Assembly: GCA_024643985.1 (NCBI GenBank)
Contig: JAHELW010000005.1
Location: 1 to 48,572 of the forward strand
Length of the DNA: 48,572 nt
Reading direction: 5' to 3'
Source: Myxococcales bacterium
GTDB lineage: Bacteria > Myxococcota_A > Polyangia > Polyangiales > Houyiibacteriaceae
In this document: in pieces, positions 1 to 6,937 of the stretch
Position numbering within the stretch: the first letter of the stretch is position 1
How the letters are laid out: each line of letters opens with the position of its first letter
Translations under genes and position numbers: made by a program
Notes under the pieces: model-generated
Seen by the model: only the letters and a program-made list of their open reading frames with translations
What the model was told of the DNA's origin: nothing
Databases searched by the model: none

Positions 1-93
1 GGGTGCCCGCTCGCTACGCTCGCCCCCACTCGCTGTGCTGGGCATCCCGACCGATTCTCCTCCGCATACGTCCTACCGCTGCGTACTGAATCC

Positions 94-160
94 GGGTTTT
101 CGCGGTGTGGGTTGCAACACCCTGAAATGACAGCCTTCCGACAGGGGGAGCATGTCCCCC
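94..160 (+). repeat. Interspersed 3'-end repeat, copy A
   Basis: It begins with the core TTTTCGCGGTGTGGGTTG, identical to copy B over 21 bases, and ends in the hairpin GGGGGA-gcatg-TCCCCC (144-160). The middle differs from the other copies. Unlike the other three copies, no recognisable gene stop abuts its hairpin end inside this window. The sequence just right of the hairpin (about 160-215) loosely resembles a degraded copy in the opposite orientation, but I could not confirm that by eye. Confidence 0.65.
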
Positions 161-322
161 TCTTGACCCTGGTTTGGTTATATCCGACCCACCCACCCCC
201 ACCCGTAATCCTCCCTCCGCGCCCTGCGGGCTTGGCGGCGCATGCGCGCCGGGCTTCGCCCTTCGGGCTCGCGCTTCCGCCTGCACGACGCCCGCCTGCT
301 TCCTGGGCAAGACGTCTGCCTA

Positions 323-510
323 GGGGCTCGGAAAAAACGCGACGGGGGTCGGAGCGGACGTGCCAAGTGACAATCGCCACGACAGCAACCACCGGCGATT
401 GGCGCGCAGCCCGAGGGAGCGCGTGCGCGGCCTACATCCCCAGTCTTACGGGCCGCATTTGCAGGCGCTCCCGATCCGCGCAGGCCCCCGTCGTGTTTTT
501 TCCGAGCCCC
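323..510. other. Candidate structured RNA or MITE-like element
   Basis: Two 26-base arms (323-348 and 485-510) are inverted repeats with one mismatch, which would be a G-U pair in RNA of one strand. Between them are two further perfect-arm hairpins: CAATCGCC/GGCGATTG (371-378 with 394-401), and a nested stem GGGAGCGC/GCGCTCCC (415-422 with 465-472) that encloses GCGGCC/GGCCGC (427-432 with 451-456). Together they would fold as a three-way junction closed by a long stem. It lies in a gene-free spacer between repeat copies A and B. A miniature transposable element with terminal inverted repeats is the main alternative. I recognise no known RNA family and cannot tell the transcribed strand. Confidence 0.5.
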
Positions 511-538
511 GTATGCGCGGTAGCGATGCCTCGAATTT

Positions 539-604
539 GGGTTTTCGCGGTGTGGGTTGTAAGTGGTTGGAATCAGCAGCTTTGGGAGGGGGGAGAATGT
601 CCCC
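539..604 (+). repeat. Interspersed 3'-end repeat, copy B
   Basis: It carries the same 21-base core as copy A followed by TAAGTG, as in copy C. It ends in the hairpin GGGGA-gaatg-TCCCC (590-604). The last base of the hairpin is the first base of the minus-strand stop codon of the phosphatase gene that follows, so in that gene's transcript the repeat starts right at the stop codon and forms the 3' UTR. That placement suggests a role in transcript ends, such as termination or stability; this is inference. Confidence 0.75.
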
Positions 605-1407
605 TAGCTTAGGAAGCCGAAGTGGTGGAGGCCCTCTAGGACGCCTCGGGCGTAGGGGTGCTCGGCGAAGTACATGCGGTCGGTGATTCCGCGGGCGGCG
701 GACTGGTCGGCCAGATCCGCCTTGAGGGCCGCGTCGGCGTTGCCGACGACGATGACCCGATAGCCGGCGAGCATCGCCGCGCGATCGTTGCCGGAGTCGC
801 CCGCGTACACGAGCTGATCCTCGTCGATGCCGGCGTGGTCGTGCAGATACCGTACCGCGTGGTCTTTCGCCACGCCCGACGGCAGAAGGTCGAGCAGCCC
901 ACGCTTCGACACGGGGTCGTAGCTGGCAACCAGGTTCACCGTGGCGCCCGCGCGATCCAACCGGGACCTCACGTTGCCGAGAAACCCGTCCGGACGGCCA
1001 TTAGTGTAATAGCTGACCTTGAACTCGGCCTGCTTCTCCTCTTCCTGGAGCTCGATGCCCGCCATCGCCCCGATCGCAGACTGAATCTGCACCCCTTTGA
1101 GACCTCCAAACGCGGCCTTCATCGCCTGCCGATACCTTTCGTCGACTTCGAAAGTCCCGTTTCTTCGGCGGTAGACGCTCGTTCCGACGTCGCAAACGAA
1201 CCAATCCGGAGTCGGAAGACCCACCTCCGCAATGCCTGCGCGCGCAAGGGACAGGTGGCGGCCGGTCACGTATGCCAGTCCGAGCGCGGGCTCTCCCCGC
1301 ATCGCCGCGACGAGCTCTGCCACCTCGCGCAAGCGCTCGGGAGTTCGCTCCAGCGGAATCAGTGTACCGTCCAAATCTGACGCGAGAAGGGTCCGTGTTA
1401 TGCTCAT
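604..1407 (-). CDS. HAD-family sucrose-6-phosphate phosphatase-like hydrolase
   Basis: The 267-residue protein is a cytosolic HAD IIB-type phosphatase, most like sucrose-phosphate phosphatase, which removes phosphate from sucrose-6-phosphate. Motif I is DLDGT (D11, D13), motif II is in VTGRH, and motif IV is GDSGND near residue 200. Its C-terminus (FAEHPYARGVLEGL) closely matches the phosphatase module of the divergent fusion gene, which supports the family call. The start is ATG at 1407, inside a 7-bp-arm inverted repeat. It is divergent from the fusion gene with 63 bp between them, and its stop touches repeat copy B. It is a second phosphatase of the same type in one locus, so it could be redundant or act on a related sugar phosphate such as glucosyl- or mannosylglycerate phosphate. 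Confidence 0.82.
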   Translation of the reverse strand: MSITRTLLASDLDGTLIPLERTPERLREVAELVAAMRGEPALGLAYVTGRHLSLARAGIAEVGLPTPDWFVCDVGTSVYRRRNGTFEVDERYRQAMKAAFGGLKGVQIQSAIGAMAGIELQEEEKQAEFKVSYYTNGRPDGFLGNVRSRLDRAGATVNLVASYDPVSKRGLLDLLPSGVAKDHAVRYLHDHAGIDEDQLVYAGDSGNDRAAMLAGYRVIVVGNADAALKADLADQSAARGITDRMYFAEHPYARGVLEGLHHFGFLS

Positions 1408-1419
1408 GCCGACATGAGC
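1402..1419. promoter_or_regulatory. Inverted repeat over the phosphatase start codon
   Basis: GCTCATG-ccga-CATGAGC is a perfect 7-bp-arm inverted repeat with a 4-base spacer. It contains the start codon of the minus-strand phosphatase gene and lies 52 bases before the start of the divergent fusion gene. In the phosphatase mRNA it would place the start codon in a stem. It also creates an upstream ATG that reads three codons and stops at TGA overlapping the true ATG. It could be an operator for the divergent pair or a translational control hairpin. Confidence 0.4.
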
Positions 1420-1470
1420 CTAGCGAGGACCGCGGCAACCCGCACCCAGGAAGCCATCAGCTGAGAGCCC

Positions 1471-4400
1471 GTGCACCGATCCCACAACCGACCTGTCATT
1501 TTCGGCGAGGTGCTCTTCGATCACTTCCCGGACGGTAGCCGCGTTCTCGGCGGCGCGCCTTTCAACGTCGCCTGGCATCTCCGGGGCTTCGGCGCCAATC
1601 CACTCGTGCTGAGCGCCGTCGGAGACGATGCGGAGGGGCGCGAGGTGCTCGAGCGCATGACGAGCTGGGACTTGATGACCCACGGGGTGCAGGTCGATCC
1701 GACGCATCCGACCGGCCGCGTCACCGCGAGCGTCGTCGACGGGGAGAACCGCTTCGAAATCGCGCCTGACCAGGCGTGGGACCGCGTGCAAGCCGGGCCT
1801 GCGCTCAGCACCACCGCAGAGGAGCCGGCCGGGCTGCTCTATCACGGCACGCTCGCTCTGCGCGGGGACGCGAGCTGGAAGACGCTGCGCGCGCTGCAGG
1901 CGGACACCGCCGCGCCATCCTTCGTCGACATCAACCTCAGGGAGCCCTGGTGGACGAAAGAAAAAGTCGACTGGTGTTTGTCGACGAGCCACTGGGTCAA
2001 GCTGAACGATGCGGAGCTCGCCCAGCTGACCGGAAGGCCCACGGACTCCTTCGACACGTGCCGGGACGCCGCGATGGCGTTGGCGCACTTACACACGATT
2101 CAAGGCGTCATCGTGACGCGCGGAGGGGAGGGCGCGCTCTCCGTTCTTGGCGGTGAAACCGCCTTCGAGGCGCACGCCTCGAAGGTCGAGCGCATCGTCG
2201 ACACGGTCGGGGCGGGAGACGCCTTCAGCTCGGTGGTGTGCCTCGGGCTGTTGCAAGCGTGGGACCATCAAACGACTCTGGACCGTGCGGCCGCTTTCGC
2301 GGCAGATCTCTGCGCCATCCGCGGTGCCACGACCACCGACTTCGCGCTGTACGAGCGGCACCTCACCGAATGGGCCAAAGACACGAGCTCGGGCTCGATC
2401 AGCGCCCCCGGCGCGCCGCAGCTCTACGTCCTGTCGCTCACGGTGCACGGCCTCGTCCGGGCGACGGACATCGAGCTCGGCCGGGACGCCGACACGGGCG
2501 GTCAGGTCTCGTACGTGGTCGACCAAGCCCGAGCGCTCGCGCACCATCCGGAGGTCGAGCGCGTCGATGTGATCACGCGGGCGATCACAGACCGACGGGT
2601 GCAGGACTGCTACTCGCGCCCGTTCGAGCCGATTTGCCGAGGTGCGCAGATCGTTCGGATTCCCTTCGGTCCGCGCCGCTACCTTCGCAAAGAAACGCTG
2701 TGGCCTCATCTCGACAGTCTGCTCGACCAGCTCGCGCGGTACGTTCGAATGCAGGACCGAACGCCCGATCTCATCCACGGTCACTACGCCGACGCGGGCT
2801 ACGTGGGTGCGCGGCTGGCGAAGCTGCTGGGCGTGCCGTTCGTGTTCACTGGCCATTCCCTCGGACGAGTGAAGAAGCTGCGGCTCGAATCCAAAGGGGA
2901 GGCCAGCGAGCAGACGTATCAGTTCACCTCGCGGATCGAAGCCGAAGAGCGCGCTCTCGAGACCGCGGCGCTGGTCATCGCGAGCACTCGCCAAGAGGTC
3001 CGCGAGCAGTACGAGCTCTACGACCACTACCAGCCGGACCGAATGGCGGTGATACCGCCGGGGGTCGATCTTTCGCGCTTTTCGCCTCCCGGCCCCTCGT
3101 GGGAGCGGCCCGCGATCGCCGACGACCTTTCGCGATTCCTGACCGATCCCGAAAAGCCGATGGTCCTGGCACTCGCGCGCGCGGACGAGCGGAAGAACTT
3201 CGAGGGATTGATTCGCGCTTTTGGCGAAACCGAGGGCCTCCGCGACATGGCGAACCTCGTCATCGTTGCCGGGAACCGCGACGACATCGGCGACCTGGGC
3301 GCCATGCCGCGTCGGGTCCTCACCCAGATCCTCGTCCTCATCGATCGCTACGACCTCTACGGATCGGTGGCGTACCCGAAGCATCACGACTCGAACGACG
3401 TGCCCGAGCTCTACCGCCTCGCCGCAAGGACGGGAGGCCTGTTCGTGAACCCCGCGCTCACGGAGCCGTTTGGGCTCACTCTGCTAGAGGCGTCGGCAAC
3501 GGGTGTGCCTCTCGTGGCGACGAACGACGGAGGCCCACAGGACATCATCGGTACCTGCAAGAACGGGCTCCTCGTCGACGCCCTCGACTCGGGCGCGATC
3601 GGCGAGGCGATGGTCGACGCGCTGAGCGACCGCGCTCGATGGAAAGATTGGTCTGACACCGGGCTCGCGGCGGTGCATGCGAACTACTCGTGGGACAGCC
3701 ACGCCTTTCGCTACGTTCAAGAAGCCACCAAGGTCGTGAAGGGTACTCGTCCGATGCCGGTTCATCGGCCGCGCACCAAGCTCGCCGGAATGGATCGGCT
3801 TCTCGTCACCGACGTCGACGACACGCTGACAGGGGACGACGAGGCGCTCGCCGAGCTCCTCGAACGCCTCGAGACGACGAATGCGAAGGTGGGCTTCGGC
3901 ATCGCGACGGGCAGGACGCTCGATGAAGCGCTCGCGCTCATGGCGGAGCTCGACGTTCGGGTCCCCGACGTTCTCATCACCGCGGGCGGGAGCGAGCTCC
4001 ACTACGGCACCCACCTGCTGCCCGACCGCTCCTGGGAACGCCAGATCCGCTATCGCTGGGATCGGGAGGAGGTCGCAGACGTCCTCGGCAAAATCCCGGG
4101 GCTCAGACCGGTCGCGGCGGCGAGCACCAAGTACCGGCTGCGGTACCAGCTCGACCCCGACGAGGCGCCGACCCTTCGCGAAATCCGGCGCCAGGCCCGC
4201 CAGGAAGGCCTGCGGATCACCACGATTCTCGACCACGAGGTTTATCTGGACGTCGTTCCGGTCCGAGCATCGCCCGGCCTTGCGATTCGTTTTTTTTGCT
4301 TCAAGTGGAATCTCGAGCCGCAGCGGCTCCTCGTGGCAGGCGATTCAGGGAACGACTGGGACATGCTTTCGGGCGACACGTTGGGCGTGGTTGTGAGCAA

Positions 4401-4545
4401 CCACACACCGGAGCTCGAGCGGCTTCGGGGGCGGCCCCGCGTCCACTTTGCAAAAAGCGCTCACGCGCGCGGGATCTTGGAGGGGATTGATTGGTATGAT
4501 TTCCTCGGTGACATCCGAATCCCCGCAGAGGAACAGAATGATTGA
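1471..4545 (+). CDS. Fructokinase / sucrose-phosphate synthase / sucrose-phosphate phosphatase fusion
   Basis: The 1024-residue protein has three complete-looking enzyme modules. Residues 1 to about 306 are a PfkB-family sugar kinase with the DTVGAGDAF signature (catalytic Asp250). Residues 317 to about 755 are a GT-B family 4 sucrose-phosphate synthase with DADTGGQ (341-345), the GHSLGR motif and EPFGLTLLE (E665/E673). Residues about 770-1015 are an HAD sucrose phosphatase with DVDDT (D781), ATGRT and GDSGND (957-962). The modules would carry fructose to fructose-6-P, then with UDP-glucose to sucrose-6-P, then to sucrose. SPS-SPP fusions are familiar; an added N-terminal fructokinase is not one I recall. 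The start is GTG after GAGAG. The stop overlaps the sucrose synthase start (ATGATTGA), so the two are translationally coupled. The kinase substrate is inferred. Confidence 0.88.
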
Positions 4546-6937
4546 CACCCTCGAAGGGCTGATGCTCGCTCATCGTGAGCCGATTTACCTCTTCTTCAGG
4601 CGGCTCAAAGCACTGGACCGGCAGTTTCTGCTCTGGTCCGACCTCGTGTACGAGTACGAGCAGTTCAGCGCGACTGAGGTCGCGGGGGCGCTTCGAAACA
4701 CGAAGATGTCGTCGATCATGCAGCACGCGCAGGAAGCCGTCGTCGATGAGCCCTTCATCGCGCTCGCGGTGCGGTCCCGCGTCGGCCGATGGCGGTACCT
4801 GCAGATCCATACCGAAGAGATGCATTGCCGGGAGCTCGCGGTCGCCGAGTATCTCGACCTGAAGGAGCGGATAGCCGCCGGCATCCCTCAAGGAGAGCGA
4901 TACGTTCTCGAAATCGACCTGAGCCCGTTCGAGCGAGGCTTCCCGAAGCTCAAAGACGCGCGCAACATCGGGCGGGGCGTCGAGTTTCTCAACCGACACC
5001 TGTCGGGACGGCTCTTCATCGACGGCGGGCGCGGCCAGCAGCTGCTCTTCGACTTTCTCCAAGTGCACCAGACGCGGGGTCAGCAGCTCATGCTGAACGG
5101 CACCCTGAAAGACATCGACGAGCTCAGAGACGCGCTCGACAGCGCCATGGAAGTCCTCGCGCAACACGAAGAGGAAAGCGAAGATCTCAGCCGCGAGCTT
5201 AGACGCTTGGGCTTCGAGCCTGGATGGGGGCGAACGCCCGCGCAAATTCGAGTGACGATGGAGCTGCTTCTCGACATCCTCGAAGCTCCATCGCCGAGAA
5301 ATCTCGAGAGGTTCCTCGCGCGCATGCCGATGATCTTTTCGATCGCGATCATCTCGCCGCATGGCTACTTCGGCCAGTCCAACGTCCTCGGCAAGCCCGA
5401 CACGGGCGGTCAGATCGTCTACATTCTCGATCAGGTTCGCGCGCTCGAGAAAGAGATGCGCGAGTCGATCCACGACCAAGGGCTCGACATCGAGCCTCAG
5501 ATCGTCGTTCTCACGCGCCTGATCCCAGACGCGGACGGCACGACCTGCGACCAGCGGGTCGAGCGCATCCTCGGCACGGAGCACGCACGCATCCTTCGCG
5601 TGCCATTCCGAACGTACGACGGGGGAGAAGTCATTCCGCAGTGGATTTCTCGCTTCGAGGTGTGGCCGTACTTGGAGCGGTACGCGATCGACGCGGAGCG
5701 CGAGCTGCTCGCTGAGCTCGGCGGCGTTCGCCCGGACTTCGTCATCGGGAACTACTCGGATGGAAATCTCGTCGCGACGATCCTGGCCCACCGGCTGGGG
5801 GTCACGCAGTGCAACATCGCGCACGCGCTCGAAAAGACGAAGTACCTGCTCTCGGACCTGCACTGGCAGCACCACGAAGAGGAGCATCACTTCGCGGCTC
5901 AGTACACCGCCGACCTGATGGCGATGAATACGGCTGACTTCATCATCACCAGCACGTATCAGGAAATCGCGGGAACGGAGGAGAGCGTCGGCCAGTACGA
6001 GAGCTACAGCTCTTTTTCGTTGCCGAGACTCTACCGCGTCGTCTCCGGCATCGACTGCTTCGACCCGAAGTTCAACATCGTGTCCCCGGGCGCCGATCCT
6101 CGCGTGTTCTTCCCGTACCACGACGAAGTACGCCGGCCGCAAGAGATTCGAGAAGAGATCGAGGACATGGTGTTCGGGTCTCCGAGCTGCGCCTTCCGGG
6201 GCCTTTTGAGCGATCGCGACAAGCCGCTCATCTTTGCAATGTCACGACTCGACCGCATCAAGAACATGGCCGGCCTCGTCGAATGGTACGCAAACAACGA
6301 CGAGCTTCGAAAGACGGCGAATCTGCTGATCGTGGGCGGGCGCCTCCGGGTCGAAGAGTCCAACGACCGCGACGAACGCGAGCAAATCGAGCGCGCCCAT
6401 TGGCTGTTCGACGAGTTTGACCTCGAGGGCCAGGTTCGCTGGGTCGAAATGCAAACCGACAAAAACAAGGTCGGCGAGCTCTACCGGCTGGTCGCCGATC
6501 AGCGGGGCGTGTTCGTCCAGCCGGCGCTTTTCGAGGCGTTTGGGCTCACCGTGGTCGAGGCGATGAGCAGCGGGCTTCCGACTTTCGCCACGCGGTACGG
6601 CGGCCCGCTGGAAATCATTCAGGACGGCAAATCGGGTTTTCACATCGACCCGACGCAGGGTCAGGACGCCGCGGCGAAGCTGCTCGCTTTTCTTCAGACG
6701 TGCGCCGAGGACCCGGCAGCTTGGAATACGATCTCGCAGGGCGGAATCGAAAGGGTTCAGGAGCGCTACAACTGGCCCCTCTACGCATCGACCCTGCTGA
6801 AGCTCTCTCGCATCTACGGCTTCTGGCGCTACATCTCCTCTCTCGAGCGCGACGAAACGCGCAGGTACCTGGAGATGTTCTACGGCTTGCTCCTTCGCCC
6901 GCTCTCGAAGCGCGTGCTCGAGCAGCACCAACACTAG
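4538..6937 (+). CDS. Sucrose synthase
   Basis: At 799 residues this matches the usual length of about 800 for sucrose synthase, which reversibly converts sucrose and nucleoside diphosphate (UDP or ADP) to NDP-glucose and fructose. The N-terminal regulatory region (1 to about 260) precedes a GT-B core with PDTGGQ (288-292), HALEKTKY, and EAFGLTVVE (E666/E674). I chose ATG at 4538 rather than the longer track start because AGAGGA lies 5 bases upstream, the length fits, and the start overlaps the previous stop by 8 bases. Coupling to the fusion gene puts synthesis and cleavage of sucrose in one operon. Nucleotide preference cannot be read with confidence by eye. Confidence 0.93.

What the first reader, a model, noticed from the sequence alone, without database searches (positions are those of the whole stretch)
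323..510. 188-bp element with a 26-bp closing stem and two internal hairpins
The arms 323-348 and 485-510 pair over 26 bases with one mismatch that becomes G-U in RNA, and the interior holds two more perfect-arm stems. The result is a three-way-junction shape in a gene-free spacer. Long near-perfect arms do not arise by chance at this length. It could be a new structured RNA, or a MITE with terminal inverted repeats.
Basis: seen in the sequence. Interest (0 to 1): 0.68.

Follow-up and report, generated by a model that had tools for sequence, protein, structure and literature searches.

The report
Mobile three-armed hairpin repeat, myxobacteria
This 188-letter stretch is one of roughly 40 copies, in this myxobacterial genome, of an undescribed non-coding mobile repeat whose three-armed hairpin shape is kept by matching mutations across a bacterial class, so that the shape of one strand, not its sequence, is what evolution protects.

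Summary
Window 323-510 folds into a closed three-way junction (-123 kcal/mol, z -9.8) with no Rfam match. It is also a dispersed repeat: about 40 copies in its own genome, 1-52 in 18 of 19 same-genus genomes, and divergent copies in other families of the same class of Myxococcota (29 of 318 genomes, patchy). Across 98 copies, 98.4% of pair cells are paired and 41 of 54 pairs show double-sided compensatory changes. Between families, and even between copies in one genome, the ~30-bp closing stem has entirely different sequence yet still pairs. Wobbles are G-U, not A-C (136:10), so the + strand structure is what is kept. Uncompensated private mutations are about six times rarer per site in stems than in loops. 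Copies sit after stop codons, mostly between convergent genes, beside no consistent protein gene. Best reading: a new class-specific, non-autonomous mobile/repeat structured element whose + strand fold (RNA or, less likely, single-stranded DNA) is selected. The mobilising enzyme and the job of the fold are unknown; reverse transcriptase and RAYT do not fit as general movers.

The parts
323..510 (+). Whole structured core element (three-way junction), the repeated and conserved unit
   Evidence: ~40 copies in own genome; fold z -9.76; CM matches across the class
323..358 (+). P1, 5' arm of the long closing stem (sequence free, pairing kept)
359..413 (+). P2 hairpin with near-invariant inner pairs (GUG/CGC with a conserved U-G, CAA/UUG)
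379..393 (+). P2 loop, AAGACAGCAACCACC-type, strongly conserved within the genus
415..472 (+). P3 hairpin with near-invariant UGC/GCA pairs and a 4-nt bulge on its 3' side
434..449 (+). P3 loop; the CCAGUCUU motif recurs in another genus (G021)
475..510 (+). P1, 3' arm; its end is the fixed outward end of the element
170..322 (+). Left module (B repeat and linker) that often precedes the core in this genome; also occurs without the core
533..604 (+). REP-like repeat next to the core; passenger or neighbour, not part of the core; its type flanks RAYT genes

Best explanation
It is a copy of an undescribed family of dispersed, non-coding, structured mobile elements of one class of Myxococcota. 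SHOWN by comparison: about 185-200 nt; a three-way junction made of a ~30-bp closing stem (P1) of free sequence and two hairpins (P2, P3) with near-invariant inner pairs; 1 to ~50 copies per genome, varying by presence/absence between relatives; placed after stop codons, mostly between convergent genes; structure kept on one strand only. INFERRED: (1) it spreads as a non-autonomous element, with the 3' end of the core as fixed outward end, moved by an unidentified enzyme that recognises the folded P2/P3 core; (2) where it lands, read-through transcription from the upstream gene makes the + strand RNA, which folds into a very stable 3'-end block that shields the upstream mRNA and/or is cut by RNase III in the long P1, which is why stem-breaking mutations are removed copy by copy. 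Step 1 is likely but its enzyme is unknown; step 2 is the most plausible in-place role and has no direct evidence. The confidence given is for the identity (mobile structured repeat with a selected + strand fold); for the 3'-end role alone I would give about 0.3.
For: Copy numbers and patchy spread. Unit moves: G016 and G018 single copies at different loci share only ~325 bp; presence/absence after ileS; copies in G012/G005 share no flanks beyond a few nt. Covariation: 98.4% paired, 41/54 pairs with double changes, score 0.435 vs 0.148 shuffled and <=0.099 slid; 44/54 in 31 mostly inter-family copies plus the window; P1 arms unrelated in sequence yet pairing, also between two copies of one genome. 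Strand: G-U 136 vs A-C 10 species-by-pair states. Constraint copy by copy: private changes at 91/401 loop sites vs 19/536 uncompensated stem sites, 39 stem changes with both partners private; same insertion in three species with different but pairing P1. Context: right gene antisense 53:10, 37 convergent vs 5 divergent.
Against: No transcript data. No mobilising gene bounded by cores was found. No exact pre-insertion site or target duplication recovered. High similarity of copies within a species could reflect recent amplification or gene conversion, which weakens the inference of selection on each copy. Copies between convergent genes may simply be where insertions do least harm.
Confidence: 0.7

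Rival explanations
1. Single-stranded-DNA hairpin element: the fold of one strand matters as DNA, recognised by a single-strand transposase (REPIN-like, RAYT or similar), with no RNA role.
For: Strand-specific structure also fits ssDNA. Inverted neighbours are always 5'-to-5' (14/14 hits; three pairs in G047), like REP doublets. RAYT presence correlates with copy number in the genus (11/13 vs 1/6, p 0.0095 before correction for relatedness).
Against: No Y1_Tnp in the carriers G047, G205, G042, G084. RAYT genes are flanked by a different repeat, not the core. Structure is kept in old, orthologous copies, which mobility alone does not need.
Confidence: 0.15
2. Plain MITE: the arms are terminal inverted repeats of a DNA transposon recognised by sequence, and the hairpin shape is incidental.
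For: Short, non-coding, multi-copy, long inverted arms, intergenic.
Against: Arms have no conserved sequence between families or even within G047; internal hairpins covary as well; wobbles are strand-specific; no target duplication seen; no insertion sequence with these ends found.
Confidence: 0.05
3. Host-owned element: a bidirectional terminator or mRNA 3'-end stabiliser multiplied because it is useful to the host, not a selfish element.
For: Convergent-gene placement close to stop codons; A6/U6 tracts flank the stem in part of the genus; stems constrained in each copy.
Against: U-runs are absent in G004, G007, G016 and other families; the terminator scan finds no simple terminator; copy number ranges from 0 to 52 between congeneric genomes with complete assemblies carrying one.
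Confidence: 0.08
4. Retro-element RNA: copied by reverse transcription from its 3' end.
For: Fixed 3' end with variable 5' extent; several partial copies keep the 3' end.
Against: RVT_1 is absent from 17 of 19 genus genomes, among them 92-100% complete element-rich ones.
Confidence: 0.02

Closest known systems
REP/REPIN repeats and RAYTs (PMC3116915, PMC3733652)
   Same: Dispersed intergenic palindromic repeats, mostly downstream of genes, with G-U pairing that suggests RNA, singlets and inverted doublets (as described in PMC3733652)
   Different: REPs are 20-40 nt hairpins with a GTAG or CGTC tag, GTAG ones tied to RAYT genes; here a ~190-nt three-way junction, no tag, RAYT genes not flanked by it and missing from several carriers
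Mobile/repeat sequence candidates such as MRSC-65-2 (PMC11109978)
   Same: Structured, strongly covarying, dozens of copies per genome, predicted selfish element, possibly acting as DNA
   Different: MRSC-65-2 is a single long stem with a UYCCGG repeat in many phyla; this is a three-way junction with invariant inner pairs in one class. The motifs themselves were not compared by alignment
ERIC and Correia-type intergenic elements (from general knowledge)
   Same: 100-200 bp palindromic intergenic repeats, often transcribed; Correia RNAs are cut by RNase III
   Different: Those have conserved terminal sequence and TA target duplication; here the closing stem is of free sequence and no duplication was seen

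Membership tests
Known Rfam RNA family | Match to a covariance model of Rfam 15 | tested here: not met
   No match at gathering score; relaxed search gives only a chance hit
Structured RNA (new family) | Compensatory base changes above shuffled and slid controls | tested here: met
Structured RNA (new family) | Strand-specific wobble pairs | tested here: met
   G-U 136 vs A-C 10 states
Structured RNA (new family) | A transcript exists | not testable with these tools
   No expression data available
MITE | Short, non-coding, multi-copy, dispersed | tested here: met
MITE | Terminal inverted repeats of conserved sequence | tested here: not met
   Arms pair but have unrelated sequences between families and within G047
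MITE | Target-site duplication | tested here: inconclusive
   None visible at the junctions; no exact empty site recovered
MITE | Related autonomous element with the same ends | tested here: inconclusive
   None found in the loci examined; draft genomes, not exhaustive
REP/REPIN | 20-40 nt hairpin with GTAG/CGTC tag | tested here: not met
   Core is ~190 nt, three-way junction, no such tag
REP/REPIN | RAYT gene flanked by the repeat | tested here: not met
   No core near 14 RAYT loci; they carry the 533-604 type instead
Retron or other RT-borne element | Reverse transcriptase in the genome | tested here: not met
   Absent from 17 of 19 genus genomes

The most novel reading that the evidence does not exclude
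A selfish nucleic-acid lineage whose replication signal is a folded three-way junction (RNA or ssDNA) and not a sequence: the near-invariant P2/P3 core is recognised by an undiscovered mobilising enzyme, while the long closing stem may take any sequence as long as it pairs. It would be a kind of bacterial mobile element without a known relative.
Probability: 0.3. Interest if true: 0.85.

Novelty: new variant of a known kind. Interest (0 to 1): 0.66.

Why it matters
It adds a covariation-supported structured family, absent from Rfam and found in at least 10 genera of one class, to the small set of mobile/repeat structured motifs. It makes a concrete question testable: how a repeat whose ends have no conserved sequence is recognised and copied. 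With up to ~50 copies at gene ends it may also shape mRNA 3' ends genome-wide, and, since many copies sit at contig ends, it probably breaks short-read assemblies of these bacteria.

Tried and rejected
Rfam at gathering and relaxed thresholds: nothing. Target-site duplications: none visible. Reverse transcriptase as mover: absent from most carriers. RAYT as mover: correlated within the genus but absent from other carriers, and its genes are flanked by another repeat. 23S-rRNA-IVP four-helix-bundle genes as autonomous partner: a separate multi-copy convergent gene pair; among 20 loci taken around matches to that flank query only four hold an intact core and two a cut or degenerate one. Pattern hits in Burkholderiales, Massilia, Verrucomicrobia and others: chance, no covariance-model match. 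Intrinsic terminator as general role: U-run missing outside part of the genus, no simple terminator found. Neighbour genes in distant families: unrelated as judged by reading the translations, not scanned against Pfam. Literature searches found no description of this element (open-access library only).

Full report
OBSERVATION. The inverted arms and two internal hairpins are present exactly where reported. The fold is 9.8 sd below dinucleotide shuffles. There is no Rfam match. The nearest gene encodes a sucrose-phosphate phosphatase on the opposite strand and ends at 604; the window is a whole contig, so position 1 is a contig end.

IT IS A REPEAT. The 188-mer occurs about 40 times in its genome (3.52 Mb, 81% complete): blastn lists some 36 long copies plus fragments, the covariance model 40 matches. 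Many copies sit at contig ends. In the genus 18 of 19 genomes carry 1-52 copies and one has none. A covariance model of 53 genus copies (R1) and one of 98 copies (R2) extend the family to other genera of the family, other families of the order and two families outside the order: 29 of 318 class genomes, 10 of 152 genera. A phylum-wide sample gave matches only within the window's own order. Named records are Myxococcota MAGs such as Myxococcales bacterium SG8_38; that the class is Polyangia is my inference from names and general knowledge.

UNIT AND MOBILITY. In G012 and most G005 copies, similarity between copies ends 1-4 nt right of the core; on the left it ends at 0-7 nt in some copies (L081, L082, L035) and at 100-270 nt in others. 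The left modules are repeats of their own that also occur without the core. G016 and G018 each have one copy, at different loci, sharing only about 325 bp. After the ileS stop codon the model finds a core in G012, G005, G006, G002 and G010 and none in eleven other genomes; in G000 a degenerate core-like stretch runs into a contig end and in G009 the locus is cut. Orientations differ. At another locus G012, G005 and G010 share the insertion with the same right junction, yet the closing stem differs in sequence and still pairs; the G005 copy has lost part of its interior. Inverted neighbours within 1 kb are always 5'-to-5' (14 of 14 hits, some of them the two halves of one pair; three pairs in G047). 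Several internal partial copies keep the 3' end.

STRUCTURE IS SELECTED, ON ONE STRAND. On 98 copies 98.4% of cells are paired, 41 of 54 pairs have double-sided changes, and the covariation score is 0.435 against 0.148 shuffled and at most 0.099 for slid partners. That alignment was fitted to the model and leans towards it, but the sliding control and the perfectly pairing yet unrelated P1 arms of distant copies do not depend on it. In 31 mostly inter-family copies plus the window copy, 44 of 54 pairs have double changes and most P1 pairs show three or four Watson-Crick types (three antisense rows removed). Wobbles are G-U in 136 and A-C in 10 species-by-pair states. Arm-templated DNA repair would not prefer G-U on one strand, so selection on the + strand fold is indicated. 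Within five species, private mutations hit 91 over 401 loop sites and 19, uncompensated, over 536 stem sites; 39 further stem changes have both partners private.

CONTEXT. Relative to the + strand, the right gene is antisense in 53 of 63 cases, and 37 copies lie between convergent genes against 5 between divergent ones (simple ORF calling). Many distant copies follow the same rule, beside unrelated genes.

MECHANISM. Shown: a mobile/repeat element with a selected + strand fold. Not shown: what moves it. Reverse transcriptases are missing from most carriers. RAYT correlates with copy number in the genus (p 0.0095 before correction for relatedness) but is missing from other carriers and is flanked by a different repeat, the type at window 88-159 and 533-604. 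My inference for the in-place role is a transcribed 3'-end block or RNase III substrate; no transcript data exist here.

COMPARISON. It works like REP/ERIC-type structured intergenic repeats and like the mobile/repeat sequence candidates of PMC11109978, but is a member of none tested: it is far larger than a REP, has a junction with near-invariant inner pairs, lacks the REP tag and the RAYT association, and its terminal arms have no conserved sequence.

LIMITS. Most genomes are draft MAGs, and copies are lost at contig ends. E-values from the short calibration are rough. No exact pre-insertion site was recovered. Only two protein families were searched as candidate movers.

Noticed in passing
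window 1-165: A separate multi-copy repeat (module A), 96-98% identical to copies in L014, L027 and L029, where it sits beside a core.
   Followed up: partly
window 170-273: Another repeat (B), over 40 matches in the genome including copies without the core; very GC-rich and palindromic.
   Followed up: partly
window 88-159 and 533-604: Two REP-like ~72-nt repeats, 72% alike, ending GGGGAG-N-ATGTCCCC; the same type flanks RAYT (PF01797) genes, in inverted orientation in L296.
   Followed up: partly
L331-L346: Convergent pairs of two paralogous 23S_rRNA_IVP (PF05635) genes, many copies per genome in G002, G012 and relatives: another apparent mobile unit.
   Followed up: partly
window 604-6937: Sucrose cluster: phosphatase (minus strand), a PfkB kinase-glycosyltransferase-phosphatase fusion of 1024 aa, and sucrose synthase.
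   Followed up: no
L071, L084 and other spacers of the genus: Short imperfect arrays of CAGTGCCAGTG-type units are scattered in intergenic spacers.
   Followed up: no
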